From positions 3,611,001-3,675,000 of the forward strand of contig NC_081821.1 in the NCBI RefSeq assembly GCF_030704535.1: 64,000 nucleotides of DNA. The letters are read 5' to 3'. Under the pieces are notes generated by a model. The model was not told the origin of the DNA. It did not search any database and saw only the letters and a list, made by a program, of their open reading frames with translations. Each line of letters starts with the position of its first letter. Positions within the stretch are counted from its first letter, which is position 1. The position numbers and the translations under genes are program-made. The DNA is from Vitis vinifera. Lineage: Eukaryota; Streptophyta; Magnoliopsida; Vitales; Vitaceae. Below, piece by piece: positions 8,896-36,113 of the stretch.

Positions 8896-8912
8896 GCGTT
8901 TACCAAGTCAAT
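8896..8912 (+). promoter_or_regulatory. Shared W-box element upstream of exon A
   Basis: GCGTTTACCAAGTCAAT, about 150 nt before the start of A. The reverse strand contains TTGACT, a W-box core. A TATA-like GTATATATCC follows at about 8,980. Confidence 0.6.
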
Positions 8913-9063: not shown

Positions 9064-9957
9064 ATGCATCCCAAGTTCTTCCCATCCACCCACTTCATCT
9101 CAATCCTCATCTTCCTCCTCTCCCATCACTTCCCAATATCGATCCGGTGTGAAGATTCTCCATATGTGAAATGCAATTTTCCCGTCCAATGTGATGATGA
9201 AGTGGGCAAAATTGTGTACCCTTTCTGGGTAGATGGGTACCAACCTGATTACTGTGGTCATCCGGCGTTCAAGCTCGACTGCATGGGATTTAAGGTCACC
9301 ATAGAGATGATGCACGGAAAATATGATGTCATTAACATCAATTATGAGGCTCAAATCCTGACGATTGCCAGAGTCAATGAATTCTTCATTAAAGATATAT
9401 TGTGTCCTGAACAGAATGCAACCATGGATTCCACCCTCTTCAAATACACTTCCAACACCCAGAATGCCACCCTGTTCTACAAGTGTCCCCCAGGGTTTGA
9501 ACATCCCGCGACTTGGAAATTTATCTGTTTGAAATTCGGTGCTCTAGACTGTGCTTTTTTTGTGTTAAATACGTCCCTGGCCACTGAACTCGTAAGCATA
9601 TGCGGGGCTGGTGTGGTCGTTCCGGTTCTTGCAACTGCTGCTCAGGGCTTTATGAATCATTCATTAGCTTTTGATCAAGTTCTGAAGGAAGGGTTTGAGG
9701 TGAAATGGACAGTAGAAGAGGGACAATGTCGAGGTTGTGCTGAGTCTGGAGGTAGATGTGGATATAATTTGAGTTCGAGCCAACCTAGTTGTTATTGTCC
9801 TGACAAACCTTATTCAACAAGCTGTCCAACTCTAAAGGCACCGCCACCGATTGCACCAACTCCAACTGCTTTGAATTCGCCAAAGTCAAGTACGCATCCC
9901 TTTTCTTCTCAAGATATATTTCTATCTCCATTCTTTCTGCACTGCTTCTTTTATTAG
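9064..9957 (+). CDS. LRK10L-type ectodomain exon A (donor at 9,889)
   Basis: Extracellular exon of a leaf-rust-10-like receptor kinase. It has a signal peptide from MHPKFF with a hydrophobic ISILIFLLS core, then GUB_WAK_bind (CNFPVQC, KIVYPFWVDGYQPDYCGHPA), then WAK_assoc ending in CRGCAESGGRCGYN and CYCPDKPYSTSC. A proline-rich linker (APPPIAPTP) follows, unlike its neighbours. The exon probably ends at 9,889 (TCAA|GTACGC, phase 1). If the intron is not removed the frame runs on for 22 hydrophobic codons to the stop at 9,957. No kinase exon lies nearby; the only one of this type and strand is at 23,756-25,059. Its partner A' is about 96% identical in protein. The start was chosen at the M(H/Y)(P/L) conserved across paralogs. 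The family predicts binding of cell-wall-type ligands, but the function here is unknown. Confidence 0.85.
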   Translation: MHPKFFPSTHFISILIFLLSHHFPISIRCEDSPYVKCNFPVQCDDEVGKIVYPFWVDGYQPDYCGHPAFKLDCMGFKVTIEMMHGKYDVININYEAQILTIARVNEFFIKDILCPEQNATMDSTLFKYTSNTQNATLFYKCPPGFEHPATWKFICLKFGALDCAFFVLNTSLATELVSICGAGVVVPVLATAAQGFMNHSLAFDQVLKEGFEVKWTVEEGQCRGCAESGGRCGYNLSSSQPSCYCPDKPYSTSCPTLKAPPPIAPTPTALNSPKSSTHPFSSQDIFLSPFFLHCFFY

Positions 9958-11682
9958 ATCAAAACATCTGCAGCGATGAGCTGATTCAAAGTTATTTGGA
10001 TACCCAGCAATGATTTTCCATGTCAAATATTCAATTTCAATAATTTTAGGAAGATTTTAAAATATTAAATTGTTTTTCAAATGTATTTACTACATTTATA
10101 TATATATATAAAAACAACCTTTTATATGTATTTCATTAGAACAGGTCTAGGGATTGGGATGGCTCGAGGGTTCTTATTGCTATTATAGGTACCATAAGAT
10201 TGTAATCCCCATGTGACGGCCAAGGCACATCCATACTCCATTTCTCGTCTTAAAATAAGTGTTGCTTCATTATTCATTTTAAACTAAATAAAGCGAAAAT
10301 GATGAATCAAAATTAGAAGAGTAAATTTTTCATCTAGCTCATATTTTAAGAGCTCAAACTATGTGATTGAATAAATCCTCCTCTATTTGTTGGGGTTGAG
10401 GACACCTTTTCTTGTCCTTCAAACTCAGAACAAGATCCATTTGACATTATTTCTAAGAAATTCCTTAATTTGGATCATAAAACCAGTGTCACTATATTAT
10501 TATCAATCTGATTGCTATCTTCTTATGTTTGTGAGGATCTCATCAAAACGTCTTCTCTCAATTTTTACATTATTTAATTTTATATTAAGCTTTTAAATAA
10601 ACTAATATATTTAATATACATATTTATTTTAGAATTTGATAAATATAAAATTATATATCTATATACATAATATAATAATATAATTGGGATAGAGGGGGAA
10701 TAGGTCCCACCTCCAACTGGGTTTCGTCTCCCATTCCAATTACTAGTCTCAATTCGTTGTTTATTACTACTAATATTTGATTGGAGGGTTACGATTCATG
10801 ATTACGTGTAGTAGGTGCATGATTTAATGATAGGCTATTTTCTAGTTGACTTTTTTACCTCGTTGATCCAGTGAAATCAACAATGAATGGGGCCGTGTTT
10901 GGCTGTTAGCAATTATATGTCTCCCAAATCCTTTGATCTTCTAACTATGCTTATCCATCCTTCAAATTATTAAAAAGAGAGGTTGTGTTTGGGATCACTC
11001 CAAATATTATAATTACAATAATATAATTATTTTATTTATTATTTATAAAGTCATAATCAGGCTTATTAAAAAAATACCATAATTTATGACCTATATATTT
11101 TGATTTATATTTTAAAAGATAATAATATAAGTTCAAAAGAAAATGATGGCATACTTTTTTTTTAATTTTTTATTTATTTTTTATTATTGGTAAAAGTTTG
11201 AGTTGCTAAAATAGGGAGCTCAAAACTGGTCAAGACTCAAAACATAATAAGACATGGGAATTTTATCATCTACTGTACGATGTTGTAAGTTTTAATATTT
11301 GATGGTGACGCCTAACAAATGGATTTAAATAAACTTTAAATTAAGGATTGTTTGGTAAAACAATTAATTCTAAGAATTCAAGAGTGACTATATATAACTT
11401 GCAGTGAACCACTAAGTTGTTGTTCTCTGTTCACACACAGAGGCTGTAAGGCTTAAAAGTAGTGCTTGTGAAATGAGGGGTAAGGTGTCTTTTCGTGGGT
11501 GGGGGGGGGGGGGGGGGGGGGGGGGAAAGGAAGAAGCCTTTTTTTAGGTTTCCAATTTTGTGGTTCTATGAAAAGCTACTATGTTTGGGCCAAGGCATCC
11601 ACGTCTTTTCATACAGCAAGTAGTATGAAAGTGCCGTGAGTTTTCTGCGCTGTTGTGATTCATGATTTTTCCGCAGAATTAG
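9958..11682 (+). other. Intergenic, promoter-type duplicate block
   Basis: No gene is seen. From about 10,440 to 11,660 it is the intact version of the block found split at 2,160-2,470 plus 7,381-8,393, and reversed at about 43,500-44,640. It holds an AT microsatellite near 10,100 and a poly-G tract at 11,501. Confidence 0.65.
11501..11525 (+). repeat. Poly-G tract (25 G)
   Basis: Twenty-five consecutive G, preceded by GGGT. The sister block at about 8,220 has only five G and the reversed copy near 43,618 has four C. The expansion is private to this copy. Confidence 0.9.
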
Positions 11683-11700
11683 GCGTTTACCAAGTCAATG
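11683..11700 (+). promoter_or_regulatory. Shared W-box element upstream of exon B
   Basis: GCGTTTACCAAGTCAATG, about 125 nt before the start of B and identical to the element of A over 17 bases. The reverse strand contains TTGACT. Confidence 0.6.
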
Positions 11701-11820
11701 AATCAATTATTCAAGTCCAGTGACCGATGAAAGAATGAAGTCATCCTGTTGTTTATATTCCATTCTGATTTCCACTCCTAACTCTCCTTCAATCCACTCC
11801 CATGCGCTTAGCTTCTCAGG

Positions 11821-12699
11821 ATGTATCTTATCAATTTCTTTCCATCTCCACTTATCATCTCAGTCGTCGTCGTCATCTTTCTCCTCTCTCTTAGCTTCCC
11901 AGAATCTGCATGCGCAGAAGATTTCTCCTATTCAAACTGCAAATCCTTATTTGAGTGCGGCAGATTGCGAGATATCGGGTACCCTTTCTGGGGAAATGGC
12001 CGACCTTATCACTGTGGGCGTCCCAAGTTCGAACTCCGTTGCGAGAGAGGTGAGCCCACCATAGAGATCAAGTCCCAGAAATATCATGTCCTCGACATCC
12101 ATCATGAGACTCAAATCCTAAAGATTGCCAGATTCCTTGACTTGTTCGATGGGAATATTGTTTGCCCTGAATCCAATGCAACAATGGATTCCGATTTCTT
12201 CAGATATACTTCCAACGATCAAAATGCCACTTTGTTCTACGAATGTGAACTTGAGTCTGAACCTCCTCAAACTTGTGATCTTTTGTGTGTGAAATATGGA
12301 AAGCAGGAGCATGCTTCTTTTGTCACAGATACAAATCTGGCTAATCAACTTGCAAGCAGATGTGAGTTTAGTGTAGTTGTTCCAGTTCTTGCGACTGCTG
12401 CTCAAGGCCTTGCGGATCATTCTTTACATACAAACGATGTTTTGGGTCAAGGGTTTGAGGTTGAGTGGATTATAGACGAAACACAATGCATAGCATGTGT
12501 TGAGTCTGGTGGTATTTGTAGATATAACTCGACTTTACAGAAGCATTTTTGTCTTTGTGGTGAGTTCCGTGGCCAAGCTTACCCTACCAGTTGTCCAAAT
12601 CCACCGGAGCTTCCACCTGCTTCAAATTTTGCTGAATCAAGTATGTGCCCCTCTTCATCTCATGATTTCTACTTTTATAATTCTTTGACTGTTGCCTGA
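11821..12699 (+). CDS. LRK10L-type ectodomain exon B (donor at 12,640)
   Basis: Extracellular exon. It has a signal peptide with a LIISVVVVIFLLSL core, GUB_WAK_bind (CKSLFECGRLRDIGYPFWG, YHCGRPKFELRC), then WAK_assoc (VVVPVLATAAQG, GQGFEVEW, CVESGGICRYN). The usual CGY is CRY here, and the usual RDKPY stretch is replaced by CGEFRGQAYPTSCPN plus a short proline-rich tail. The exon likely ends at 12,640 (GAATCAA|GTATGT, phase 1). Read-through adds 19 codons with a hydrophobic stretch to the stop at 12,699. It is intact here, while the partner B' (43,325) carries a frameshift and a stop. No own kinase exon. The start was chosen by alignment of MYLINFF with the paralogs' MH(P/L) starts. Confidence 0.85.
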   Translation: MYLINFFPSPLIISVVVVIFLLSLSFPESACAEDFSYSNCKSLFECGRLRDIGYPFWGNGRPYHCGRPKFELRCERGEPTIEIKSQKYHVLDIHHETQILKIARFLDLFDGNIVCPESNATMDSDFFRYTSNDQNATLFYECELESEPPQTCDLLCVKYGKQEHASFVTDTNLANQLASRCEFSVVVPVLATAAQGLADHSLHTNDVLGQGFEVEWIIDETQCIACVESGGICRYNSTLQKHFCLCGEFRGQAYPTSCPNPPELPPASNFAESSMCPSSSHDFYFYNSLTVA

Positions 12700-13469
12700 T
12701 TCATGTGCTTTTTGGCGGGAAGATTCTTGTTCCTAATCATCTATTTCATTATTTTATCCAATTAAAATTAAATTCAAGAACCCCCATCTCAACTAACTAC
12801 TTTATGTAGATTACACCCATTATGATTTCCCACCACTTCAATTTCTTCGGGGAACCATCTTCCACCCTTATGCCACAATACTAAATCCATCCTCATTTGC
12901 TCATCATTGGTTGCAATCGTGGTAACATTTTCTTAGATTTAGTTAGATGATTAGGGTGATCTAATTTGATTATTCTTTTTAGTTAATGTGCTTTTATTTA
13001 GATGAGTTTCTACTTCTAGTAATAAGAAATTAACTCTTAACATAATAAACACAAATAGAAGTCTATAAATCTTATACTACAATATAAAGCTAATAGTCAT
13101 ATTTGAAGTTCTTTTGGGCATCAAAGGTACAATGAAAATTTCACCCTGTTTCCAACTTTGGACATTCTATCACTCTTCTTTTTCTCCCTCTTTCCTTTCT
13201 TATCGAGAAACAATCAGCCCATGGATGCACTCTCTATAAATTAGAGAAAAAAAAGCTCATCCAAGCTCGTATTTTCTATATATGTGTCACCATTGAAGGT
13301 TTTGATTAAATGATTGAATCCAGATTGGAAAGTTTCAATTTGTTGTTGTTGTTCTGCCTATGGTTTCCATCAAAGGCGATTCTATGATAACTCACTTCTA
13401 ATTCATTTGGGTGCATTAATTTTAATTCTAGCATCTTCCTCACCAAACCACTTCCATCACCCTCTCCAG
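12700..13469 (+). other. Intergenic, promoter side of C
   Basis: No gene is seen. Part of it (about 12,950-13,100) is also found at about 750-890 before C''. A TATA-like CTCTATAAATTA lies near 13,232. The W-box element shared by A, B, D, E and G is not evident, so C has a different promoter type. Confidence 0.5.
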
Positions 13470-14327
13470 ATGCATCTCATCTTCTCAGTTTTCATCTTCT
13501 TCCTCTCCCATCGCTTCCCAAAATCCGTGTCCACCGACGACATTCAATTCTCAAACTGCAACCCTTCGTTCCAATGCGGTGGACTGGGCAAAATCGAGTA
13601 CCCTTTTCTGGCTAGATGGCCACCAGCCCCGTCACGGTGGGCGTCCGGGGATCAGCCTGCATTGCCGGAATGGCGAGGCCACCATTGGGATCAGTACCGC
13701 GTCATCGACATCGATTACAACGCCCAAGTCCTAAAGATTGGTACAATCAATAATGGGTCGAAAGGGGCTTGTCCTCATCCCAACGCAACCATTGACCCAT
13801 CTCTCATGAGCTACACTTCAAAGGTTGAGAACACCACCTTCTTATTCGATTGTTGGCAGTATGAAGATCATCCCGGATCTTACGGGTTCACCTGTGAGAT
13901 GGATGACCTTCAACGCCCATCCTACTTTGTTGTAAACACATCTCTGGCAAATGAGCTTGGAAGCAAATGTGGGGAGAGAGTTGTCATCCCTGTTTTGGGA
14001 ACTGCTGCTCAAGCCCTTCTGAATCATTCATTAGGTGTGGATGGACTTTTAAGAGAAGGGTTTGAGGTTGAATGGGAAGTAGAGGAGGAAGAAGAATGCG
14101 GAGAATGTGTTGAATCTGGAGGTGGATGTGGATATGATTGGAACTTGAACATGCTTATTTGTTATTGCCGGGACAAACCTTACTCAACAAGCTGTCCAGA
14201 TCAAGATTCAAGTATGTATCCTCCTTCTTCCCATGATTTCTATGTCAATTTCTTCCTTCTTGGTGCGTTGGAATGTGATTGGGTAGTCAGAATTTGGGGA
14301 CGACTGGATCTAAGTTTAGATATTTGA
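13470..14327 (+). CDS. LRK10L-type ectodomain exon C with scrambled YPFW block (donor at 14,211)
   Basis: Extracellular exon starting at MHLIFSVFIFFLS; upstream in-frame ATGs exist at 13,314 but lie in the leader. The segment after KIEYPF reads LARWPPAPSRWASGD for about 31 codons. An extra T shifts the frame and a small downstream deletion restores it before YRVIDIDYNAQ. In the original frame the DNA still encodes FWLDGHQP and LHCRNGEATIGI. The conserved Trp and the CG and C residues of GUB_WAK_bind are therefore lost. WAK_assoc is normal (VVIPVLGTAAQ, LLREGFEVEW, CGECVESGGGCGYD). The exon ends at 14,211 (TTCAA|GTATGT, phase 1); read-through reaches the stop at 14,327. The same change is present in C'. 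The fold of the first domain is doubtful, though the frame stays open. Confidence 0.8.
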   Translation: MHLIFSVFIFFLSHRFPKSVSTDDIQFSNCNPSFQCGGLGKIEYPFLARWPPAPSRWASGDQPALPEWRGHHWDQYRVIDIDYNAQVLKIGTINNGSKGACPHPNATIDPSLMSYTSKVENTTFLFDCWQYEDHPGSYGFTCEMDDLQRPSYFVVNTSLANELGSKCGERVVIPVLGTAAQALLNHSLGVDGLLREGFEVEWEVEEEEECGECVESGGGCGYDWNLNMLICYCRDKPYSTSCPDQDSSMYPPSSHDFYVNFFLLGALECDWVVRIWGRLDLSLDI

Positions 14328-15140
14328 GTTGATTTTACATATGAACTTAAAAGAATCCTTTGCTCATAGCATTTGAAATTTAGACCAGGTTTTGGTTTTA
14401 TGCATTTTATCCTCTTTCCATCCATATAATTGGCCTTTGTTGAAATTTTATTAGGTTAAGGCTCCATTTTATTTTATTTCTCTCAAATTTTTATCTATTT
14501 TTTCATTGTCTTTTTTAAGAAATGAACAAATCTTTGGTTGCTTTTCTTTTTTCTTTTTCCTTTCCGCTTACCCTTTTTGGGATTTGGACTGGTATTCATT
14601 TCTTTCTTTTCAACTAAAATAATTTTGATATAATATAGATGGTTTTGGTTGTCCCATTAATATAACGTAGCTATATCGCAGCGTCACCATCAAACTATAT
14701 GATTATATCATAGGTTATAAATTTTAAATGCCTAATTGTTCAGTCCATGTCTTCCTTGCAAACTAGTAGCATCACTCTGAAAACACACCCAAATAGTTGG
14801 ACTACCTGATTGTATAACACTGATTAGGGTTGTGGTATTTTTGAAGTTTAGCCCCTTAGGAATTTTACATTTATATATTTTACAATATTACTCTCTAAGT
14901 TTATCGTTTTTGCATTTTTTTTTTTATTCATGCGTTTTGTAATTTTCCGCGTGAAGAGTGTGAATGCTGAGAATCTTAAATACTAAACCTGAACCATTTG
15001 AGAGAGTAGGTTAAGAAAGGTGGTAGAAAGTTTGGATAAGCAACAGTGATTGGAGAGGGAATGAAAAGTCTTTGTTTAAGTCAAGTCGTCCATAAGGAAA
15101 GTGTAATCATCGATTAAACGTGTAGACTTACGGGGTATTT
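14328..15140 (+). other. Intergenic
   Basis: No gene is seen. It is paired, reversed, with about 39,985-40,690 in the right arm, including a stretch around 14,690 (ATAACGTAGCTATA). It is the promoter side of D. Confidence 0.5.
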
Positions 15141-15155
15141 GTTTACCCAGTCAAT
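15141..15155 (+). promoter_or_regulatory. Shared W-box element upstream of exon D
   Basis: GTTTACCCAGTCAAT, with AAACGTGTAG about 25 nt before it, as also before E. A TATA-like CTATATATCCC lies near 15,246. The distance to the start is about 170 nt. Confidence 0.6.
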
Positions 15156-15324
15156 GACTCAATGCATATATTCTATAGAGTAACGGAAATTTGAATGAAT
15201 GAAGAATATGGGGCCGCATTTCACTTTCAATTTTTTTTTCTTTGTCTATATATCCCCTCTCATTCATTGATTTGCTCATGGTATGTGTGATTTTCCCACC
15301 AGTTCAACTTCATCCTTCCTCCCA

Positions 15325-16173
15325 ATGCATCCCAATTTTTCCCAATCTTCCCTTCTCTTCTCCCTCATCCTCTTCTTCCTCTCCCATCACTTCCCATGCT
15401 CTCTATGCCTTGACTCTCACTATTCAAACTGCACTTCTTCGCCTGAGTTTTTTGAGTGCGGGTATGAATTGGGCAAAATTGAGTACCCTTTCTGGGTATC
15501 TGGTCATCAAGCTGAGTATTGTGGTCATCCTTTGTTCAAGCTCTACTGCGAAGACGAACATGCCATCATAGAGATCAAGTCCCGAGAATACAAAGTCCTT
15601 AAAATCAATCCTGAATCTCAAATCATACAGATTGTTACAATGGATGTATTGCCCAAAGAGCATATTGTTTGTCCTCAATCGCCGCTCATGGATTCAACTC
15701 CCTTCAACTATACTCCGGATGTTGAAATGATGGCTGTGGCTCTGACTTACGATTGTTCCTCCGTTGGTGATCATCCTGGAGCTTACCACTTCTCTTGCAC
15801 GATGAATAACAGTCTTCACGAGGCTTACTTAGCAACAAACAAATCTGTGGCATATGAGCTTGAAAGCAGATGCAAAAATAGTTTTGTTATTCCCGACTTT
15901 CCAGTTCTTGTGCGGGAGTTAAAAGGGCTGCTGAATGGTTCATCATATGATGTGGAGGAGGTTCTGAGAGAAGGATTTGAGGTTCAATGGACAGCAGACA
16001 ACGCAATATGCAAAGAATGCGTTGGCTCTGGGGGAACGTGTGGATACGACACTACGTCGAACAAATCATGGTGCCTTTGTCGCGACAAACCTTACCCAAA
16101 TAAATGTTCAAGTATGTATCCCTCTGCTTTTTCTCTTCTCATCAATTTTATGTTGGTTCTTGTGAGAGATTAA
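15325..16173 (+). CDS. LRK10L-type ectodomain exon D (donor at 16,111)
   Basis: Extracellular exon. It starts at MHPNFSQSS with a strong hydrophobic LLFSLILFFLS core; an in-frame upstream ATG at 15,283 is less likely by comparison with paralogs. GUB_WAK_bind blocks: FFECGYELGKIEYPFWVSG, EYCGHPLFKLYC. WAK_assoc blocks: DVEEVLREGFEVQW, CKECVGSGGTCGYD, CLCRDKPYPNKC. The exon ends at 16,111 (TGTTCAA|GTATGT, phase 1); read-through adds 20 codons with LLINFMLVLV to 16,173. Its mirror D' differs at roughly one residue in six, much more than the A or E pairs, and most changes lie in the first 200 residues. No own kinase exon. Confidence 0.87.
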   Translation: MHPNFSQSSLLFSLILFFLSHHFPCSLCLDSHYSNCTSSPEFFECGYELGKIEYPFWVSGHQAEYCGHPLFKLYCEDEHAIIEIKSREYKVLKINPESQIIQIVTMDVLPKEHIVCPQSPLMDSTPFNYTPDVEMMAVALTYDCSSVGDHPGAYHFSCTMNNSLHEAYLATNKSVAYELESRCKNSFVIPDFPVLVRELKGLLNGSSYDVEEVLREGFEVQWTADNAICKECVGSGGTCGYDTTSNKSWCLCRDKPYPNKCSSMYPSAFSLLINFMLVLVRD

Positions 16174-17755
16174 ATTGCTGACCCATACGGCTTTGGTGGG
16201 ATGAGTCTTTACCATGATTTCTTCTTTCAATTTTCTATTTGTTTTTCTCCCTCACCATTTAGTTTTGAATTATTAGTTAGCATGGTATTAAGAAGAATTC
16301 TAGCTTGGAGCAACTTTCTATTCAATAATTTCTAGAGGAAAAAAAAAAAAAAAGGCCCATGATTTTCACCCAAAACTGAATTTTATAGAACTTGTATAAA
16401 ATTCACTAAATGATAATTTAATAATAACTGTATTAGGAAGAGTAAGTATTTAGTATCTTTGCTGAGTACCATCTTCTATTTAATTTATGTCCCCAGTGGT
16501 TTTTTTTTTTTTTCCAGAATGTTTTAAAGATAAAAAAATAGTAAAAGAAAATTTAAAAATAAATATTTAATGATTGAAACTTTTTTTATTACTCGTAATA
16601 TCAAGTAACATCTCTTTTTTTTCCCCTTTATTTTAGTCATATTTCCTTGGAAGACCCTTTTTGAAATATAATTTTAAATTTATTTAATTCTTTTTATCTA
16701 CATTCATAATTTTTCTTAGATTGAATTTCATTTATCTATTAAAAATCATGTATTGATTATATTTATATTTATAATTTTTTTTTTTCACAAAAAGCATTGA
16801 TATTAAAAAATTATTAACATATGAAAAGAAAAAAAAAGGAGAAAATGTAGTAATGCTTCCAATATTTAGTTTTTCACTTTTATATATTCATCAATTTTTT
16901 GTTCAATATATTTTGTTATTTATGGTCACTTAAACTACTTCTTGTCCTACTAAGTGCTTTCATACTCAAATAATAAGAAATTTTCAAATACTAGAAAATT
17001 TCAAAAAAAATTTCAAAAATTTCTATAAGTTTATCTAATTTATCATCTTAACCAACAGCTTTCATACTATCTTCTAAAATCAAGATTTCAAAGTATAGCT
17101 TCAAAGTAAAAGAAATATATTAGAGAAAGAAGTCAATTTGAATAAATATTAATTTCAAAATGGGCCCTTGATGTGTATTTGTATGGTTAGAGCCACTTTG
17201 AATCCAAACCTAAAATTCCAGACATTTTATCATTTGATTATTGTAACTTGTACTTCCTGTTTTTTTTTACCTCATTTCAAAATCAGTTGTTTGATTGTCA
17301 TCTTGTATGTCTATTGGAGGGAAAAGCCAATTGAAAGCCCAACACGTGTTTAAATTATTTATTAAAACAAAATGTCCTCCATAGCTGTCCCGTTCATGGA
17401 GGCACTGTGTGTATGATAACACACCAAATTACTTCAATTCATTAAAGGATCTTTAAGAATTAAAATTTTTTAATGCATTGCAAATGTATCAAAAGATAAT
17501 TTTCGTCCCATGGGAAAATATTATTACAGAAGTTGAAAGTGTTGTACATGAGTGATGATTCTCTTGATAGAGAATAGTCTCACTTCCAAGTCTTTTTTAA
17601 GTCAATATACATATATATTATGTGTCAAAAATTATTTTAACAAAAGTTGTAAGTGTTGAATATGATTGATGATTTTTTGAGAGAGTACTCTCCACGAGTC
17701 TTCTAAGTCAATACACACATATCATTTATTTTTCCTGAAACGTGTAGTATGGGCC
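16174..17755 (+). other. Intergenic, site where the right arm has exon G'
   Basis: No gene is seen. AT-rich, with A and T runs. The last 0.25 kb pairs with about 36,130-36,340 on the right. The equivalent interval on the right is longer and holds exon G'. It contains possible low-complexity decay but no recognisable G remnant. Confidence 0.5.
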
Positions 17756-17771
17756 ATTTACCAAGTCAATG
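17756..17771 (+). promoter_or_regulatory. Shared W-box element upstream of exon E
   Basis: ATTTACCAAGTCAATG, with AAACGTGTAG about 15 nt before it, as seen for D. It lies about 105 nt before the chosen start and is conserved in E' at about 36,114-36,130. Confidence 0.6.
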
Positions 17772-17872
17772 ATGAATGGATGGTTGGGGGCATTGAGTGA
17801 ATGGAGTTTTTATTTAGTTTTATCCTTCCATCCACTCATCACTCTTTCTCATTTTTCCACCACTTCACTTAC

Positions 17873-18877
17873 ATGCATCTCAAAGATTTCTTCCCTTCTT
17901 CCCTTGTCATCTCCCTCTTCATCTCCATCCTCTCCCATGCCTTCCCGAAATATGTCTGCGGAATCGATTTTCGCTATGCAACCTGCAATTCTTCAGTAGA
18001 ATGTGGTAGACTGGGAAAAATTCACTACCCTTTCTGGGTAAACGGCTCCCAACCTTGGTATTGTGGTCATCCCTGGTTCGGTCTGTTCTGTCACAAAGAC
18101 GAGGCCACCATGTTGATCTGGCCTGAACTTTTTCATGTCATCGACATGGATAATAGGACTCAAACCCTGAAGATTGCCAGAATCTATGAGCCCTCAACGG
18201 GGAATTTTTTTTGTCCGATCTTCAACGCAAGCATAAAGTCAACTTCCTTCAGCTATTCTTCCGATGTTGAATTTATCACTTTCTTGCACAATTGTCCTCC
18301 GATCGAAGTTTTATCATCTTATGAGTATCCTTGTGTGGTAGTAAACAAGAAGCAAATCCACAGTTACTTTGTGGCAAATACATCTTTGGCAAATAGATTC
18401 AGAAGCAGATGTGGGTATAGTGCTCTTCTTCCTGTTCTCGGAAGTGCTGTAGAAGGCCTTATGAATGGTTCATTAGATGTGGAAAAGGCTTTGAGCAAAG
18501 GGTTTGAGGTCAAATGGACAGCAAACGAGTCACAGTGCGAAGGGTGCATGGAGTCTGGCGGTAGGTGTGGGTATGACAGGAATTTGAACACGCCTTCTTG
18601 TTTTTGTCGTGACCGGCCTTATCCAGAAAGCTGTTCACGTTCATCAAGTATGTATCCTTCTTCTTTCGATGATTTGTATCTTAGTTTTTTCCTTTGTTGC
18701 TTCTTCTACTATTACATCAAAACATCTGTTTTCTTCTACTCAATCATCTATTCAATTATTTGGATGGCCATAGTTCAATTCCGCAACCCTTTTCTCAACT
18801 ACGCCTTAATGCATCATTACTTCTTTCTTACCACTTTGCTTTATCAAGGACCCATCTTTTGTATTTTATTAGTCTAA
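17873..18877 (+). CDS. LRK10L-type ectodomain exon E (donor at 18,647)
   Basis: Extracellular exon starting at MHLKDFF, the start that E' also has; an in-frame ATG at 17,801 exists only because the leader is open here. Signal peptide, then GUB_WAK_bind (CNSSVECGRLGKIHYPFWV, YCGHPWFGLFC), then WAK_assoc (LLPVLGSAVEGL, LSKGFEVKW, CEGCMESGGRCGYD, CFCRDRPYPESC). The donor is at 18,647/18,648 (TCATCAA|GTATGT, phase 1). Without splicing, 76 further codons follow, with two hydrophobic stretches (LSFFLCCFFYYY and a later one), ending at 18,877. From about 18,335 to 18,852 it is almost identical to E' (one difference seen), whereas the 5' half differs more. No own kinase exon. Confidence 0.87.
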   Translation: MHLKDFFPSSLVISLFISILSHAFPKYVCGIDFRYATCNSSVECGRLGKIHYPFWVNGSQPWYCGHPWFGLFCHKDEATMLIWPELFHVIDMDNRTQTLKIARIYEPSTGNFFCPIFNASIKSTSFSYSSDVEFITFLHNCPPIEVLSSYEYPCVVVNKKQIHSYFVANTSLANRFRSRCGYSALLPVLGSAVEGLMNGSLDVEKALSKGFEVKWTANESQCEGCMESGGRCGYDRNLNTPSCFCRDRPYPESCSRSSSMYPSSFDDLYLSFFLCCFFYYYIKTSVFFYSIIYSIIWMAIVQFRNPFLNYALMHHYFFLTTLLYQGPIFCILLV

Positions 18878-20067
18878 GCTTATGCATAAGAAAGTAAAGG
18901 TAAGCATGAACACGTCACCTCTTGGTCTGTTTTTTTATTTTTTATTTTACTTCTTAGGTGTAGTTCGAGAAATTCAAATTCGAATGATGCATGTTACATT
19001 GTTGAAATAAATATGTGGAATCTTTTCTATATGTTTCCCTGATTTATCATTTTAATCAATAGTTTTAATACCACCTTCTCATTTTTTTAGTCACAAAGGA
19101 ACCCTTTAAATGAATATTATTATGTTATTAAAATTAATAAAAATATCTAATGTATTTAAAACTAGAAGTAGGATTATGGTTACGGGCCGGTCCTTGATGA
19201 AGTGTTCAATGCCGCTCCATTTTGTTCAATTCAAACAGGCCCAGCCCGCCTCCCTCCTTCCTTTTTATCACTAAAGCCCAACTGCCCCTCCCTTTTTATC
19301 ATTAAAAGGGTCAGGCCCAATTAAACGATTTCTATTTAAAATTTTCAAATCTGGACCTCAAAATTAAGACATCACTCGGCTAAATCAACTTCTTGTTTCG
19401 TATAGCAAACAAAAGAAATACATTTTTTTGCTAAAAAATTATAATATTAAATAAAAATAATATAATATTTTTTAAAATTATAAAATTAGTTAAAATTAAA
19501 TAATTTTTTTTTTCATTTTCAATATATTCGCATTTAAATATTATGCATATCTCATTTAATAAAATTTAAAATATTAATACATTCATACTTATGCATAAAA
19601 TAAAAATTAAATACTACTGATTTTTAATTTATTTATATATATATATATATATTTTTAAAATTTATAATTATTTTTAATTTTAATAATATATAATCACATA
19701 TTTATCATATCAGTGGTTTAATCGTGATTTGACCACCGGTCCAACTAACAAACCTTGAATCAGTAACTTTTTCGATTCAATGATAAATTTGGTTTGAAAA
19801 CATTAGTTAGATTACTTGATTTGTGGACCTTTTTATTTAGCATGATTTTATTTATGAACCTTTTCTAGACAAAAATATCCAATGTTTTGGTCAATCAAAT
19901 TAGTGTGGATGAAAAAATTTTGTTTAATATATTTTGCTACTTCATGGTCACTTGAACTACAACATGTCTTAGCAAGTGCTTTCAAACTCCAATAATAAGA
20001 AAGCCCAAATACTTGTAATGCTATTGACCTTCAAGACGTCCATATCGAAGTCAACTAGACTGCTCCC
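18878..20067 (+). other. Intergenic, AT-rich with repeat debris
   Basis: No gene is seen. Around 19,715-19,800 a segment (GATTTGACCACCGGTCCAAC, then TAACTTTTTCGATTCA) resembles the right end of the TIR element at 50,736-51,807, so it is probably a fragment of the same family. It does not pair with the right arm here. Confidence 0.5.
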
Positions 20068-20500
20068 ATGGCAAATTTCTTATCCTTTTCCTCTGAATTT
20101 CACTTCCTTCGAGTGGATGCCCAAAACATCTTCATTTTCAGAAACACTTTGCTTTTATTTATTATTGTTATTATCTTGGGCATTTTAGGTTATAAAACTC
20201 CATCCTATCAGACCCAGAAATTAAGGCCTGCGGGCCTCAGAACAGTGGGACTGGTCCAAATATACGTTACCCCTTTCTGGATTCCTAAAGAACAAGAATC
20301 CAATAGTGATTACCTGAAATTACAATCACTTGCAATGATGAAAAAACAGTGCTTTCTGTGTTTCTGTTATTGATGATTATGTCATTGGAGAGATCTTTTA
20401 CGCAAGCCACTAATTTCTTGTGGCTAACTCTCCTCTCCACATTTCTCGGCTGGCTTCCCCTCATGGGGTTTAAGGAATTAGACAACAATTTCTGCGGTGC
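20068..20500 (+). pseudogene. Relic of an LRK10L1-type ectodomain exon
   Basis: The reading VDAQNIFIFRNTLLLFIIVIILG matches the DAQNIFIWKSTF...IIVVIII start of the LRK10L1-type gene at 29,664. After a frame change, VTPFWIPKEQES matches its SYPFWIPKEQES, and later DNA (about 20,320-20,400) still resembles its DEKPVLTISDDY region in another frame. At least two frameshifts and loss of the C-terminal half are apparent. Nothing similar is seen at the matching place in the right arm. It shows that an LRK10L1-type ectodomain also once lay on this side, just before gene F. Confidence 0.75.
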
Positions 20501-20767
20501 CTAACACTGTGGACTGATAGTCCTGAACATGACTTCAGATATGGTCTTTTTTTCCCTTCCTTTTTTTTTTTTTTTGTTTTGTTTTGTTTTGTTTTTTTAT
20601 TACCTCGAAAGAAAATTAAAAAAAAAAACCCTCAAAGTCAAAGTCAAGAATCAACCGCCATCAATCATACCCAATCATAAAATTCCAAAGTATCCGTCTG
20701 CATTGAACTAGCATACACAAAATCTTCTATATCTTTGATTTGAATACCATGCTCAGTCTTTAATTCC

Positions 20768-23700
20768 ATGCCGATGCTTCTTCTCCATGAGTTCCGCCGA
20801 ATGGGTACCAAGCTCTTTCAATCATTCATCCTACACTCCCCCATCACCTTCTTCTCCATCTTCATCACCAGCTTCTGCGATGATAACCAGCAATATGAGG
20901 AGTGCACAAGTCGTCTGTACGAGTGCGGAGACATGAAAGGCATAGGGTATCCTTTCTGGGGAGATGGTCGACCTCAATTCTGTGGGCAAGGGTTCGAGCT
21001 CAAGTGCCAGGATGATGATTACCCTCTTATAGCTATTGGTTCTTTGGAATTCCGAGTACTCAATATCAGTAATTCCACTTATGCTATGAGAATAGCCCGA
21101 AAGGATTTCTGGGATCAAACTTGTCCTAAAGAATTCCAATCCACGACTCTCAATTACACGTTGTTTGATTATGCTGGTACCGATCGAAACCTCACCTTAT
21201 TTTACGGTTGCCCCGATGAGGTGTTGTCCCAACTCCCGGCTACCTGGAATATTAGTAATAATTTTACAGGCTCAGTTGAAGGTATAAATGATACCACTGT
21301 TTTCTACGCGGATGAAGCGTTTCTGGGGCTTGATCAGCACCTTGCAATCCTAAGGACTTGCAAAATCAACGTCACGCTTCCCGTTCTAGGAGCCGCTATT
21401 GATGAACTCAATGCCAATAGGACAGGGGGCGAAGTTAGTAACGGAGAGGGACTGGAAAAGGCTTTGAATATGGGATTTGATGTGGATTATAGCGTAGTCA
21501 CAGGGTTGTGTGTGCAGTGTAATGCGTCCGGTGGAATATGCGGATCATCCAGCACGTCTCAATTTAGCTGCCTTTGCCGTGATAAATCTTATCCATACTC
21601 GTGTCAAAAATCAGGTATGTTTCCCATCAGATTGCTCTGCATCCATCAAACTGTGAGGCTTGCTAGGGTTCATGGGCTTATGGCAGAATTAATGATTGAG
21701 GACCATAACTTTTGGTCTATCAAAAGCCAGTCCATTTGCTTGTGGGTTTTGGGAGGGTCAGACCCTCTTTCTTGTTCTAGTTTTTAGTGGTAATAAACTA
21801 TTGATTCAAATTCCAATTCAAACATCATCCTAGGAATCCCCCATCTCATCTAGCTAGCTGGAGCCTGGAGACAAATTTTATCTTACCAAATCTTCCCATA
21901 CAATTGGAATGAAGATTATTCCGTGCCATATGCCTCCTACTATTCCTGTTCAATAAGTCCATCTGCAACTTTTCTTTGATTAATTCTTGCCAAGGCCATC
22001 AGTGAACTTATGGCTAGTAAACCTTCAACTCTCGTGTGAATTCAGTGAATAAATCTAGCCATGAAGCTGGCAGGCAGGCTTATTGATAAGTGTGTAAATG
22101 TCCCAAACTATAAGAGTTGGAAATGAAGACTAGATCAAAGCTTTCTAGTCATCTTATCTGAATTTAAAAAGAAAAGAAAAGAAAAACTAAAAGCAAAACA
22201 AAAAGAGGTGAGTGATGAGGAAAATAACATGTTCTATTTAACATTTTTTTCTTATTACCATTTCTTTAAGTAATTAAAAGTTCATTTGATAGATGAAATG
22301 GATGAAATAGGTGTCCGATCCACCTGGATAACACAGGTGTTTGTGTTATTGAGAACATGAAGGTTCGAGTCACAACCAACACGAACCTTCTTTGTTTGTA
22401 ATAGGGAATCTTTTTATTATTCTTCCACCATTGAGGGTAGGTCGCATGTCCCAATCTTCAGTCATGAATTGGAGCCATTTCCTATATAGAGATTTTTTTA
22501 GTGACATAGCAATAGTATTTTAAGAAAATATCTTTAACTATTTTTATAGAAAAAGTATATATTTAGTAAAATTTAGAAAATATTTTTAAAATTTTAAAAA
22601 AAAAATCACTTATAACATTGAAAAATCACTTATAGTAGTGAAAAATTATTTATAGTATTAAAAAATTATTTATAATATTTAAAAAAAAACACTTAGGAGA
22701 TAATTCTCTTATAAACACTTTTACTAAAAATATTGTGAGTAAAAATATTGTTAAACACATTATAACACTTTAATATATCATTCTTAATAAAGATCTTTTG
22801 GGTTTATAAATATCTCAACTAGTCATCTCGTCTAATTAATTTTTCAACTAATTAATTATCACCTAACATTGTCACACATAGGTTTCATTGAATTATCGTT
22901 CATATAATGTTAAATACATTCAAAGACAACTTGACTCTATTGTCACATATTAATAATATATGACTATTTTGGTACTTAAATTATACAAATGTATCAAGAA
23001 ATTTCGAAGGAAACTTTGACAAAAATATTGATGAGATGGAAACTAATCAAAACTCATGAAAATATTAAAAAAAATTAAAAAAATGATATAAAAAGAAAAA
23101 TAATATGCATATTGCAGTTGCTTTGTTGAAGATATATAATGCATGATATTTGAAATATTATGTACAATTTGAAAATATATTTAATATTAAAATAATTTAC
23201 TTTGTATTGAAAGATAATTTATGTGATTATTTTTTCTATTTAAAAATATTTATAATTTTATTTACAAATTTATATTTTATAATGAATTAGACTTACGATT
23301 TTTGTATTTTAATAACAAAATAAATGAAATTTGAAAATAAGATAATTAAAATTAATTAATTAATTAAAATTTTATTTTTTTCATAAAAATATTAAATATT
23401 TAAGTATATATGTATATTAAATTTTATTTTATTTTTTGGTATTTTGTTTTTATCACAAGTAAATAGTTGCTCCACGAACAAAGCTCAACCTTGCACATAA
23501 AGGAGTCAGGTTTGGGACTGCATCTATTGTGCCGGTCGACCAACTATATGTTGACTTTCCTTAACATTTTTATCATTGGTTAAACCATTTGTTCATGAAA
23601 TCCCATATTTGTATGGGATAAATTATAAAAATCACATATATTTTTGTCTATTTCTCAATTTAAATGGATATATTACTTCGCTCACATTAAGATATTTTAG

Positions 23701-25059
23701 GAAATTTTCTTTTCACCTTAGTTAAGATTCTCTAATGCATGGATTTTTGTTGCAGAGTCTGCAAACATTCCAAAGACAATCATGATGGGTAATTCTTCAT
23801 TCCTATCTACTTGCTTGTTTATTCCTCTATATATATGTACCAAAAATTCAAAGCAAAGTGTTTGTGTTTCGAGTTATTGTAGTTGCTATATTTTCTAAAT
23901 TGTCTTACCTCCTCTCTTGTTAATTACAGCCGTTGTTGCAGCAGGAGTTGGGACATTATTCGCCAGCATTCTTATAATCTTTTGCTTCAAAAGAAAAATA
24001 TCAAAACATAGACTAATGTTCATTTGGAGAAAGAGATCTGATGCTGATCAAAACATTGAAGAATTTGTTAGGAATTATGGATCTCAAGCTCCTAAGAGGT
24101 ATAGTTATTCAAATGTTAAGAAAATGACTAATGCATTCAAGGATAAATTAGGCCAAGGAGGCTATGGAGGTGTTTACAAAGGAAAGTTAGGTGATGGTCA
24201 TCTTGTCGCAGTCAAAGTCCTCAACACGTCCAAAGGAAATGGAGATGAATTCATTAATGAAGTTGCAAGCATTAGTCGGACTTCTCATGTCAATATTGTC
24301 AGACTTTTGGGCTTTTGTTTTGAGGGTGGCAAAAAAGCTCTTATATATGAATTTATGAGCAATGGGTCTCTTGAAAACTTCTTAGGCAGTGAAAATCCTT
24401 TGAAAGTCAGTAAACACTTGGGATGGGAGAAGTTGTATCAAATTGCAGTTGGGATAGCAAGAGGACTTGAATACTTGCATTGTGGCTGCAGAACAAAGAT
24501 ATTGCATTTTGATGTGAAACCACACAACATCCTTCTAGACCAAGACTTTTCCCCCAAAATCTCTGATTTTGGGCTTGCTAAATTATGCCCACCAAAAGAG
24601 AGTATTATATCAATGTCAGCAGCTAGAGGAACTATTGGGTATGTTGCTCCAGAAGTGTTCTGTAGAAATTTTGGCCAAGTCTCACACAAATCCGACGTCT
24701 ATAGCTATGGAATGATGGTTCTAGAAATGGTTGGAGGAAGACAAAACGTCAATGGCACAGTGGGTCACACCAGCGAGACATATTTTCCGCATTGGATTTA
24801 TAAGCATCTTGAGCAGCAAGAAGATCTGGGACTAGAAGGCATTGAGAACAAAGAGGAAAATGAAATTACAAGGAAGATGATAGTTGTGGGTTTATGGTGC
24901 ATACAAACAAATCCATCACACAGGCCATGCATGAGTAAGGTGATTGAAATGTTGGAAGGAAGCATAGAAGCCTTACAGATCCCACCAAAGCCTTTCTTAT
25001 CTTCTCCTCCAAGGTTTCCGATAGATTCTTCATCCTTCAAATCAACACTATCACAATAA
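20768..25059 (+). CDS. LRK10L2-type receptor-like kinase, gene F (complete, 3 exons)
   Basis: Predicted exons are 20,768-21,614, 23,756-23,788 and 23,930-25,059 (2,010 nt, 669 residues). Splice signals are TCAG|GTATGT...TTGCAG and ATGG|GTAATT...TTACAG, all in phase 1. Order: signal peptide; GUB_WAK_bind (CTSRLYECGDMKGIGYPFWG); WAK_assoc (CVQCNASGGICGSS, CLCRDKSYPYSC); 11-residue mini-exon (around ANIPKTIMM); transmembrane VVAAGVGTLFASILIIFCF (about 295-313); kinase with GQGGYGG, VAVKV (Lys about 389), HFDVKPHNILL (about 486), DFGLAK (about 506), APE (about 533). HFD in place of HRD makes it a non-RD kinase, a class frequent in immune receptors. Plasma membrane Ser/Thr kinase by family. Start uncertain between 20,768 and 20,774. 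It owns the only kinase exon of this type in the window. Confidence 0.9.
21615..23755 (+). other. Intron 1 of gene F, with inverted-repeat breakpoint
   Basis: A 2,141-nt intron. Up to about 22,120 it pairs with the right arm (about 31,890-32,574). After that it is unique, AT-rich DNA. At 22,305-22,470 a segment has a GGTTCGAGTC box like a polymerase III B box. No other exon is recognised. Confidence 0.7.
23756..23788 (+). other. 33-nt mini-exon of gene F
   Basis: Bounded by TTGCAG and GGTAATTC; encodes the juxtamembrane SANIPKTIMM. The LRK10L1-type gene has a mini-exon of the same length (27,591-27,623) in the same phase. Any upstream + strand exon ending in phase 1 could join it without breaking the frame. 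Confidence 0.85.
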
Positions 25060-26191: not shown

Positions 26192-29100
26192 TCAGCTGCT
26201 GCCATTAGTAGTTGAGGGCCAACTAGTCCAATTTGTAGTCACAGAATCCGGTGAAGCTGGTGGTTGCTTACTCTTCAACAACCCAACACTGTCTGCTGGA
26301 ATCTCCACCTCCTCTGTCTTTACTATATTGCAACCCTCACTCTCAATGCCCATTAGAACCTCAAGCACTTCATCCATAGCAGGTCTCATTTCCTTCTCAT
26401 TTTGCAAACACTGAAATGCCAACTCTGCCACTGCCATTATCATCCTCCTTATGTTCTGGTCTGAATCAAACCCAAGGGAACGGTCAACAAGTTCATGCAA
26501 TGCATGGTTTTGGATCTTGTTGATAGCCATGTTAGACAAGTTAATCTCATGCCGGTGCCTAGTGATATCAACAGCAGGCATGGATGATATAAGCTCAATC
26601 AGGACCACCCCAAAGCTATAGACGTCACTCTTGCTTGTAAGCTGGTAGCATTGGTGATAATCGGGATCAACATATCCAGGAGTTCCTTGTGGAGCAGTTG
26701 AAACATGGGTAACATCTGTCGGGAAGAGACGGGACAGCCCAAAATCTGCAACTTTCACAGAGAAGTTGCTGTCAAGGAGAATATTGTTGGTTTTGACATC
26801 ACGGTGGATGATATCAGAAGCATGGAGATATTTCAATGCACTTGCAGTCTCTATGGCAATTTTCATTCGAGTTGGCCATGTGAGTGATCCAGGTTTAGCT
26901 TGTTCACCGTGAAGATGATCAGCAACAGTACCGTTAGGAACGTATTCATATACAAGGAGGAGCTCTCTGCTGTGGCGAGAGGTGCACCCATATAGGGAGA
27001 CTAGGTTTCGGTGGCGCAAAAGTTGGAGGATCTCAACTTCATTCATGAACTGCTCAACCCTCTTGTAATTGTTTTCATATAAGCGCTTCACAGCAACAAC
27101 ACGACCATCACGGAGTTTGCCTGATAAGATCATACCAGAACACAGGAATATTCCATTAAATGGTGCAAATAGGCAAATTCCAACTACAAGAGAGTAACTC
27201 CTCTTACCATGATATACGGTGCCAAAGCCTCCATCTCCTAGTTCTTTGCTGGAATCAAAATTGTTAGTGGCTTCTTCAAGTTCTTCGTAAGTGAATATAT
27301 GGACTCCGTGTAAGCTGCCCTGGCTCTCAAAAATTGTCTTCGAAGAGGGATCAGAAGAGATATTTCGAGAGAACAAAGGTGGAGGATAGCGCTTCTTGTA
27401 GCGGCGTAGATACATGAGGAAAAAAATGCTTGAAATAAGGAGAGTACCTAATCCAGCACAAACACCTGAAGAGGGGAAATAAACAGGGAGGCATAAAAGC
27501 AGTGTGAGGATTGGACCGGGAAGAAATCTCGCTGTATCTGGTCAAGTAATTAAGTTGACAAAAGAAATTTCCAATTTGGGGGCATATTACCTATAATAAC
27601 CTTCCTGTGATAGTTTAGTCCCTCTGTGATAGCAATAACGAAATACAAAAGAAGTGTTAGTTTAATCATTGATAACTAATCACATACCAATATACACATT
27701 AATGACAAGCTTTATGAACATTGTATCCTCGTACACAACCAATAGGACCTGCAGTTCCAAATTTTCTATATGTTTCACTTTCACATTTTCATGTTCTTGG
27801 TATTCCACTTATCCATTAAAGGGTTTAGGAAGGGGGGAAAAAGCTGAGCTATGTTGATTGAAGACAAGATTGTAGGAGAATGAAACAAAGCCATAAAATC
27901 ATCATATTTACGATTTTGATTACGGATGTTTGGGGTAGCCATGTTAGGGTTCTCGCCCATACTAAAACCTGAAAGGATGCTGTGGTGATTGGTCCACACG
28001 ATGTATCCAGGACTTTACATGAAGAGATGTTAATTAGCATTGAGGGTGTTTCTCTAAGAGGAAGAAAGTGGGGATGCCTAGAGTCTAGAAACATTTACAG
28101 AGGATAGAAAAGCTGGAATAGTAGCAATTTTCAACATCCAATTGGCATGATCTGTGGTTCCATTTTGCCTCATAGCTTGACTGTTGAATCAATACATGTG
28201 CCAAGGCGAAAACATTCATGCAAATTTATATTAAATTAACTTGCCCTTAAAAGAAAAAAATGCAGCAGAAAAATATCTAATCGTCCATGAAAAGGAGTCC
28301 ACAGAGAACTAAATATGTTTCTTCTTGTGATGGTAAGGCCTAAGGTTTACCAGAACTCCTTTCAAGCTTATATAATCATTAACTCTCTTAGAAGTTCCTC
28401 CCAAGGCACACATTTGACTTGGGTGAAAGCAAATAGGCTTATGTATTGCTGATCCCAATCATGTCATCTCCAAGACCAGACTAAAAAGAGAAAAGGAGAA
28501 AAAAAACACAAAAACAAAAACATGACCTTTGATTAACTGGATTGTCTCCTAATGGTAGCAGAAAGGATGTGAATGAAACCTTGGATATAACCAAAACCTA
28601 AACATGTTGAGAAAGCAGCAACTTTTCCTTGCTCTCTCAGCAATCATTGTACAAAATGGCCTAAAAGAAATCAAAGAAAAACCAACACAAAACTGCAAAG
28701 AACATCTTGCTTTCTAGGGGTTTTAAATAATTTAGGACCAGAATTCAAATCATCTAACAATGAAACAATTAAATGATGATTGAAACAGATAGTATCAGAT
28801 AGAATTACCATCATGGCAAGTTCTGAGATGTGGGCGATCCTGGCAAAAACAGATGAATTCATTGTTTTCAAATCCACAACGCCCACCACTTCTCTCACAA
28901 GAGCTACAATTATTTGCAGTCCAACTCAAAACAAACCCCTCCCTCAAAATCTCTGTGAAATTCCAGTTTAACAAATTTCCAAAACCCTCTTCACCATCAA
29001 TATCGACAGGCACATTAACCATAGATTGGCATGACTCTGTAGAAAAATTCATGTACTCCAAAGCTTCCTCATGAAAGCTAGCAAAGGAGTGAAGAGTAGC

Positions 29101-29664
29101 ATTGCTCATGCAATCAATTGGAATTGTTAAGGTCTCAACAGGAACAGAAGTGCAGTTGTAGAACAACAAGAGATCATAATGAGAAGGACTGTAATTGAAT
29201 GGAGTCCTATCAAGACTAAAGTTATGCAGAGGAGTTGGGCATGAATCACCATCATAGACAGCAGAATTAGACATGAGAAACGAGTGGTTGGTGTAAAAGA
29301 TCTCTCTAATGACATAATAATCATCAGAAATAGTGAGCACTGGTTTTTCATCATTGCAAGTGATTGAGAAATTTGGGAAACCACAATAGGATTCTTGTTC
29401 TTTAGGAATCCAAAAGGGGTAGCTTACATTTGGACCTGTCCCACAATTGTGAGGCTTGCAGGCCTCAAACTTTGGATCAGCAGATAGGGTTTCAATAACA
29501 AAGCTGGTGAAGATGATAATGACTACAATTATACAGAAGGTACTTTTCCATATGAAGATGTTCTGGGCATCCATTTGAAGAGGAATGGAGAGAGAGAACA
29601 GAGGAAAACAGAGAAGATGAAGAAAAGTGGGGAGTTGGAGGGGAGCATTTGAAGACAATTTCAA
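26192..29664 (-). CDS. LRK10L1: LRK10L1-type receptor-like kinase (complete, 4 exons)
   Basis: Predicted exons on the minus strand are 29,664-28,809, 27,623-27,591, 27,465-27,208 and 27,120-26,192 (2,076 nt, 691 residues), all GT-AG. Order: leader (an alternative start at MDAQNIF is possible); GUB_WAK_bind (CKPHNCGTGPNVSYPFWIPK, YCGFPNFSITC); WAK_assoc (LREGFVLSW, CSSCERSGGRCGF, CFCQDRPH); mini-exon EGLNYHRKVII; transmembrane GVCAGLGTLLISSIFFLMYL; FTYEELEEATNNF; kinase with GDGGFGTVYHG, VAVKRL, HRDVKTNNILL, DFGLSR, TPGYVDPDY. It is an RD kinase, resembling Arabidopsis At1g18390 as far as I can recall. The 87-nt intron 27,207-27,121 has no stop and a length divisible by three. Located in the spacer of the inverted repeat. 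Confidence 0.92.
27121..27207 (-). other. In-frame 87-nt intron inside the kinase coding sequence
   Basis: Donor CATG|GTAAGAGG and acceptor TTATCAG|GCAAAC. It has 87 nt, exactly 29 codons, and no stop. Retained, it would insert a hydrophobic segment (VVGICLFAPF, then FLCSGMIL) between the glycine loop and the ATP-binding Lys. Confidence 0.85.
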
Positions 29665-35994: not shown

Positions 35995-36113
35995 GGAAGT
36001 GAAGAGGAGGAAAAAATGATAAAGAGTGATGAGTGGATGGATATATTAGGCCATGGAAGGATAAAACTAAATAAAAACTCCCTTCACTCAATGCCCCCAA
36101 CCATCCATTCATC

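What the first reader, a model, noticed from the sequence alone, without database searches (positions are those of the whole stretch)
9064..25059. Six phase-matched ectodomain first exons lined up before one kinase module
Exons A, B, C, D, E and F lie in tandem on the + strand, four of them (A, B, D, E) with a recognisable shared promoter element. Each ends with a phase-1 donor, mostly A|GTATGT, and only one mini-exon plus kinase exon of this type exists (23,756-25,059). Splicing any of them to 23,756 keeps the frame; A-E would give ...S-K-S-A-N-I-P and F gives ...S-E-S-A-N-I-P. The layout is that of a variable-first-exon locus such as UGT1A, but with receptor ectodomains, so one kinase could be fitted with six ligand-binding heads. 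I do not know of this described for LRK10L genes. The alternative is that A-E are ectodomain-only genes. The layout is seen; the shared use is inference.
Basis: partly seen in the sequence, partly recalled or inferred. Interest (0 to 1): 0.88.

Follow-up and report, generated by a model that had tools for sequence, protein, structure and literature searches.

The report
Plant receptor heads sharing one kinase
A plant chromosome carries a row of different receptor "heads", several with a shared promoter element and a preserved splice site but no kinase of their own, in front of a single kinase, so one signalling kinase may be fitted with several alternative sensors; a form of this is already reported in Arabidopsis, and here the splicing itself is inferred, not seen.

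Summary
The layout is real, with corrections. Six phase-1 LRK10L-type ectodomain exons (A-F) precede one 33-nt mini-exon and one kinase exon; all six join in silico to open frames of 634-662 aa. Five are full heads; C lost its GUB_WAK_bind domain by frameshift.

Phase match is weak evidence, since it is general in the relatives examined. Better evidence is evolutionary: A, B, D, E and the related G' are old (dS 0.67-0.89), with no kinase relic found between the + strand heads, yet with C they keep a TCAA|GTATGT donor far better than neutral sites (0 of 60 and 10 of 90 pairwise differences against 203 of 479). A 14-nt element lies upstream of A, B, D, E and five - strand heads (9 sites, 0.07 expected). 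I favour a variable-first-exon receptor locus (0.52).

The finding omits an inverted copy of the array that lacks this kinase but points in frame at another LRK10L kinase, so layout alone proves nothing. The mechanism is not new: Arabidopsis LRK10L3 uses alternative first exons with different ectodomains and one kinase (PMC13136898). The number of heads would be new. No transcript data were available.

The parts
9064..9889 (+). Head exon A: hydrophobic N-terminus, GUB_WAK_bind, WAK_assoc; donor CAA|GTACGC (weak), phase 1
11821..12640 (+). Head exon B, both Pfam domains; donor CAA|GTATGT, phase 1
13470..14211 (+). Head exon C, damaged: frameshifted stretch 13604 to about 13694, no GUB_WAK_bind, no promoter element; donor intact
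15325..16111 (+). Head exon D, both Pfam domains; donor CAA|GTATGT, phase 1
17873..18647 (+). Head exon E, both Pfam domains; donor CAA|GTATGT, phase 1
20801..21614 (+). Head exon F, separate branch from A-E, donor CAG|GTATGT (highest score of the six), nearest to the kinase
23756..23788 (+). 33-nt phase-1 mini-exon, no close copy in the window
23930..25059 (+). TM and kinase exon (HFD in place of HRD: non-RD kinase)
   Evidence: motif read from the translation
8899..8912 (+). Promoter element TTTACCAAGTCAAT upstream of A
11686..11699 (+). Promoter element upstream of B
15142..15155 (+). Promoter element (1 mismatch) upstream of D
17757..17770 (+). Promoter element upstream of E
32333..46737 (-). 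Inverted copy of the head array, in blocks; A', D', E', F' open, B' one-nt deletion, C' stop and donor GT>GC; the + strand kinase is not in it
37059..37803 (-). Head G', full length, promoter element at 37894-37907, no + strand partner found
28809..29697 (-). Open frame of head exon ecto2, next to the second kinase; donor ATG|GTAATT, phase 1
27591..27623 (-). Proposed 33-nt phase-1 mini-exon of the second kinase
26192..27465 (-). TM and kinase region of the second LRK10L-type kinase (HRD: RD kinase)
   Evidence: motif read from the translation

Best explanation
A variable-first-exon LRK10L receptor locus. Each intact head (A, B, D, E, F) is a first exon with signal peptide, galacturonan-binding-type ectodomain and phase-1 donor, and A, B, D and E share a promoter element. 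Transcripts started at any of them can splice over the heads in between to the single mini-exon at 23756, so one membrane-anchored non-RD kinase is displayed with alternative ectodomains. F, with the highest-scoring donor and the shortest intron, is probably the main partner; A, B, D and E, with weaker donors, would be used less or conditionally, perhaps under WRKY control through the element. SHOWN: the exons, phases, donors, acceptor, promoter element, lack of a detectable kinase relic between the + strand heads, age and donor conservation. INFERRED: signal peptides (read by eye), that splicing to 23756 happens, which heads are used, and what they bind.
For: All six joins are in frame. A, B, D, E and G' are pairwise dS 0.67-0.89 apart with NG86 omega 0.51-0.66 and no in-frame stop, so they stayed intact long after they split. 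No kinase relic was found in the window beside the two kinase genes (tblastn E 1e-3). Across A, B, C, D, E and G', donor positions -4..-1 differ in 0 of 60 pairwise comparisons and +1..+6 in 10 of 90, against 203 of 479 at fourfold sites of A, B, D, E and G'; +7..+18 differ in 46 of 180 and +19..+40 in 191 of 330. Beyond the donor the would-be codon positions differ alike (20, 15, 21 of 90), so there is no sign of coding. The read-through frames after the donor end at different lengths in each head. Promoter element at 9 sites, all upstream of heads; 6 of the 31 exact genome copies are here, against 4 genome copies of the reversed control. On contig C16, 85 of the 92 listed kinases that have a listed head within reach have one, maximum three (capped listings), so this array is unusual. 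Precedent in the same family: PMC13136898 (passages).
Against: No transcript evidence. Donors of A-E score lower than F's (3.60, and 1.97 for A, against 7.57 on a recalled weight matrix), and introns of 5-14 kb must be read through other promoters. Since the inverted duplication, polarised codon changes in A, D, E and F are 9 synonymous and 40 nonsynonymous on the kinase arm, 9 and 31 on the other arm, 5 and 25 unresolved, so the kinase-linked copies are not visibly better kept; pair omegas are 0.46-1.6. A', D', E' and F' remain open without this kinase. Phase match is general. Bases +7..+18 after the donor are themselves somewhat conserved. An 85-nt block, 85% alike, follows both D (16897-16980) and E (19918-20002) and was not found in the inverted arm; it could be a transposed repeat or a shared element or exon. 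The mini-exon scan would miss a diverged mini-exon.
Confidence: 0.52

Rival explanations
1. A, B, D, E (and the inverted copies) are stand-alone ectodomain-only genes that make secreted or loosely anchored proteins by reading through the donor to a nearby stop.
For: Promoter elements upstream of A, B, D and E; read-through frames of about 14-77 codons exist; the donors are weak on a recalled matrix; A', D', E' and F' keep open frames without this kinase.
Against: The donor is the best-kept stretch while the tail has no codon signature; the tails differ in length and end, and their hydrophobic look is what a T-rich intron start would give (inference).
Confidence: 0.17
2. The heads are remnants of complete receptor genes in birth-and-death turnover: kinases lost, heads decaying, donors not yet eroded.
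For: Decay is seen: C, B' and C', relics at 473-748 and 1165-1763. Recent pair omegas near 1 for B, C, E and F.
Against: Five heads (A, B, D, E, G') dS 0.67-0.89 apart still have full frames, both Pfam domains and nearly invariant donors, and no kinase relic was found between heads.
Confidence: 0.15
3. Only F is wired to the kinase; A-E splice to unrecognised short 3' exons of their own.
For: F groups, with modest support (82/91, long-branch warning), with three C14 heads, two of which are followed by a similar kinase, and has the highest-scoring donor. Donor conservation would also be explained. The 85-nt block shared by the stretches after D and E is a possible candidate, with no clear acceptor seen by eye.
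Against: In the stretches after the heads, most similarity found was between the two arms' own counterparts; no block was found after all the heads. Short unconserved exons cannot be excluded.
Confidence: 0.16

Closest known systems
Arabidopsis LRK10L3 alternative first exons (PMC13136898, passages)
   Same: LRK10L family; alternative first exons give distinct extracellular domains with identical TM and kinase; peptides for both isoforms.
   Different: Two isoforms there, shown by peptides; here up to five intact heads, with no transcript data.
AtLRK10L1 two-promoter gene (AtLRK10L1.1 and 1.2; Shin 2015 as cited in PMC12479429; also PMC10573068; passages)
   Same: LRK10L gene with separate promoters giving two transcripts.
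   Different: The passages read do not say whether the ectodomains differ; only two transcripts.
Vertebrate UGT1A and clustered protocadherin loci (recalled)
   Same: Tandem variable first exons with own promoters and shared constant exons.
   Different: Unrelated proteins; shared splicing there is demonstrated (recalled).
Ordinary one-head LRK10L genes on contig C16 of the same genome
   Same: Head exon followed on the same strand by a kinase exon, median 2.3 kb between their listed starts.
   Different: 85 of the 92 listed kinases with a listed head within reach have a single one (capped listings).

Membership tests
LRK10L receptor-like kinase | GUB_WAK_bind plus WAK_assoc ectodomain | tested here: met
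   A, B, D, E, F, G', ecto2 and ecto3 have both; C has only WAK_assoc
LRK10L receptor-like kinase | Single TM followed by Ser/Thr kinase with conserved catalytic residues | tested here: met
   Pkinase 2.2e-46; TM-like stretch, VAVK, HFDVKPHN and DFG read by eye from the translations; no TM predictor run
Variable-first-exon locus | Several first exons with splice-compatible donors upstream of one constant acceptor | tested here: met
   no close second copy of the mini-exon (insensitive scan)
Variable-first-exon locus | Own promoter for each first exon | tested here: inconclusive
   shared element upstream of A, B, D, E, not C or F; activity not measured
Variable-first-exon locus | Transcripts joining several first exons to the shared exon | not testable with these tools
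Ectodomain-only gene family | Conserved coding C-terminus and stop beyond the donor | tested here: not met
   no codon-position signature over +1..+18 in six heads (a short stretch); tails of differing length

The most novel reading that the evidence does not exclude
A palindromic head library serving two kinases: the + arm heads (A, B, D, E, F) splice to a non-RD LRK10L kinase, and the - arm heads (A', D', G', E', F'), with ecto2, splice to a different RD kinase through another 33-nt phase-1 mini-exon, so an inverted duplication re-used one set of sensors on a second signalling output.
Probability: 0.14. Interest if true: 0.85.

Novelty: new variant of a known kind. Interest (0 to 1): 0.5.

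Why it matters
If the heads share the kinase, a plant receptor gene would gain up to five ligand-binding heads by promoter choice, a plant counterpart of UGT1A or clustered protocadherins and beyond the two isoforms reported for Arabidopsis LRK10L3. It would also mean that receptor counts made by kinase domain understate the sensor repertoire. It is directly testable with long-read RNA data.

Tried and rejected
Phase match as evidence: rejected, since phase 1 is general in the relatives examined. Stronger constraint on the kinase-bearing arm: looked for, not found. Positive selection on head D: omega 1.5-1.6 but Fisher p 0.24, not claimed. A codon-model run in IQ-TREE gave branch lengths, no omega. 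No solved structure resembles head F by sequence at E 0.1 (only F was tried). A downstream exon shared by the heads: none found after all of them, but an 85-nt block follows D and E; a genome search with the D copy listed only itself and missed the E copy, so it is too insensitive to tell a repeat from a local element. An earlier plant survey of alternative first exons (PMC2174465) shows 0 occurrences of words beginning kinase, tandem or duplicat in its main text. Literature searches bearing on multi-head LRK10L loci; most hits were seen as listings only. Of the papers whose passages I read, only PMC13136898 describes the mechanism for this family; PMC9024592 merely says that a maize LRK10L gene is alternatively spliced in endosperm. 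Only open-licence papers are held.
Full report
WHERE. The window is C17:3611001-3675000 of a 495.6 Mb, 21-contig genome. It looks like grapevine: most listed relatives lie on C16 (123 of 150 heads, 99 of 107 kinases), and the grapevine kinome paper reports most LRK10L-2 genes on chromosome 16 (PMC5878832, passages). The species name is inference.

WHAT IS THERE. A-F are single open exons. Last exon bases are 9889, 12640, 14211, 16111, 18647 and 21614, all phase 1. The acceptor at 23756 begins a 33-nt mini-exon, followed by a TM and kinase exon from 23930 to 25059. All six joins are open, 634-662 aa. Pfam gives GUB_WAK_bind and WAK_assoc in A, B, D, E and F, but only WAK_assoc in C, where a 1-nt insertion at 13604 and a net deletion near 13694 shift the frame. 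So the count is five complete heads and one damaged one. The kinase reads HFD where RD kinases read HRD; that class is often linked to immunity (recalled).

WHAT THE FINDING DOES NOT MENTION. The block is duplicated in inverted orientation, in pieces between 8392-21848 and 46737-32333. In the inverted arm A', D', E' and F' are open, B' has a 1-nt deletion, and C' has a stop and a dead donor. An extra head G' (37803-37059) has no + partner. The + kinase was not found in that arm, nor a close copy of its mini-exon. Instead the inverted heads lie upstream of a different LRK10L-type gene (ecto2 and kin2), whose proposed 33-nt mini-exon (27623-27591) is also phase 1, and the five heads tried (A', D', G', E', F') join it in frame. 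Layout and phase alone therefore prove nothing.

WHY I STILL FAVOUR SHARED USE. Matches to head E outside C17 that cover most of it are at most 35% identical; shorter pieces reach 45%, whereas the C17 heads A-D and G' and their copies are 41-49% where they match over most of E (same call; F, F', ecto2 and ecto3 are 25-34%). In the tree A, B, D, E, G' and their copies group with modest support (89/80, under the tool's own mark of 95/80). A, B, D, E and G' are dS 0.67-0.89 apart, with omega 0.51-0.66. No kinase relic was found between heads. Yet across A, B, C, D, E and G' the donor TCAA|GTATGT is nearly invariant: 0 of 60 and 10 of 90 pairwise differences, against 203 of 479 at fourfold sites (A, B, D, E, G'); +7..+18 differ in 46 of 180 and +19..+40 in 191 of 330. 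On a star tree with the fourfold rate, the chance of keeping GT in all five is 0.05, so GT alone says little; the chance of keeping the 10-mer in four and GT in the fifth is about 4e-6. This is a rough model. Beyond the donor there is no codon-position signature (20, 15, 21 of 90). A donor kept this way probably has something to splice to, and the only compatible acceptor with a recognisable coding exon that I found in the + arm is 23756.

PROMOTERS. TTTACCAAGTCAAT with at most one mismatch occurs 9 times in the window, always 90-172 nt upstream of a head start codon (A, B, D, E, A', B', D', E', G'); 30 simulations averaged 0.07, maximum 1. At up to 3 mismatches it is not clearly enriched (24 against 16.6; 7 of 100 shuffles reach 24). 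Genome-wide there are 31 exact copies, 6 of them here, and 4 of the reversed control. It holds the reverse complement of a W-box core (recalled), so WRKY control is a guess. C and F lack it.

HOW UNUSUAL. On C16, of 99 listed kinases, 92 have at least one listed head within 20 kb upstream on the same strand: 85 have one, 6 two and 1 three; 23 of 123 listed heads had no listed kinase in reach. Listings were capped (150 of 256 head candidates, 107 of 2254 kinase candidates scored), so heads per kinase are lower bounds. On C14 two or three heads precede one kinase in places (for example 20534454 and 20536157 before 20541111), but some of those exons carry stops.

AGAINST. No RNA evidence. Donors of A-E score lower than F's (recalled matrix). 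Introns would be 5-14 kb for A-E. Since the inverted duplication the two arms have evolved alike (9 synonymous and 40 nonsynonymous against 9 and 31 codon changes in A, D, E and F, 5 and 25 unresolved), and pair omegas are 0.46-1.6, so recent constraint looks weak in both arms. An 85-nt block, 85% alike, lies after D (16897-16980) and after E (19918-20002), and was not found in the inverted arm or the fetched C14 and C1 stretches; heads D and E are only 62% alike. It may be a moved repeat, a regulatory element or part of a short 3' exon; a genome search with it was too insensitive to decide. The mini-exon scan would miss diverged copies: the two modules' mini-exons agree at 17 of 33 positions. 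B and D exons differ by 9-10% between arms while flanks, except downstream of D, differ by 1-3%, which suggests exchange or fast evolution of the head itself.

KNOWN. PMC13136898 (passages) reports alternative first exon use in Arabidopsis LRK10L3 with distinct ectodomains and an identical TM and kinase, supported by peptides, and suggests recognition of diverse signals with one signalling core. PMC10573068 and PMC12479429 (passages) state that AtLRK10L1 uses distinct promoters for two transcripts. This locus would be a many-headed variant. Searches bearing on a multi-head LRK10L locus found none described (open-licence library, mostly listings).

VERDICT. A real and, by the C16 comparison, unusual arrangement, most likely a variable-first-exon receptor locus (0.52), a new variant of a known kind, unproven until junction reads are seen.

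Noticed in passing
window 8392-21848 and 32333-46737: Large inverted duplication of the head array, head blocks 88-98% alike, with the two kinase genes lying in the centre.
   Followed up: yes
window 16897-16980 and 19918-20002: An 85-nt block, 85% alike, after head D and after head E, not found in the inverted arm. Unexplained.
   Followed up: partly
window 11821-12640 / 42490-43325 and 15325-16111 / 38995-39784: Heads B and D differ by 9-10% between arms although most flanking DNA differs by only 1-3%; in B the divergence spans the mature ectodomain with both exon ends conserved. Gene conversion or fast diversification.
   Followed up: partly
window 473-748 and 941-2172: Broken relics of an F-like and a C-like head upstream of the array.
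   Followed up: partly
window 3384-6062, - strand: Frames that by eye read like a degenerate copia-type retrotransposon.
   Followed up: no
window 47080-47865, - strand: Full-length head (ecto3), both Pfam domains, with a GTATGT donor that I read by eye as phase 1 in the sequence, and no kinase next to it.
   Followed up: partly
L011-L013, C14:20343681-20357299: Three heads in a row before one kin2-type kinase on another contig; a multi-head layout recurs.
   Followed up: partly
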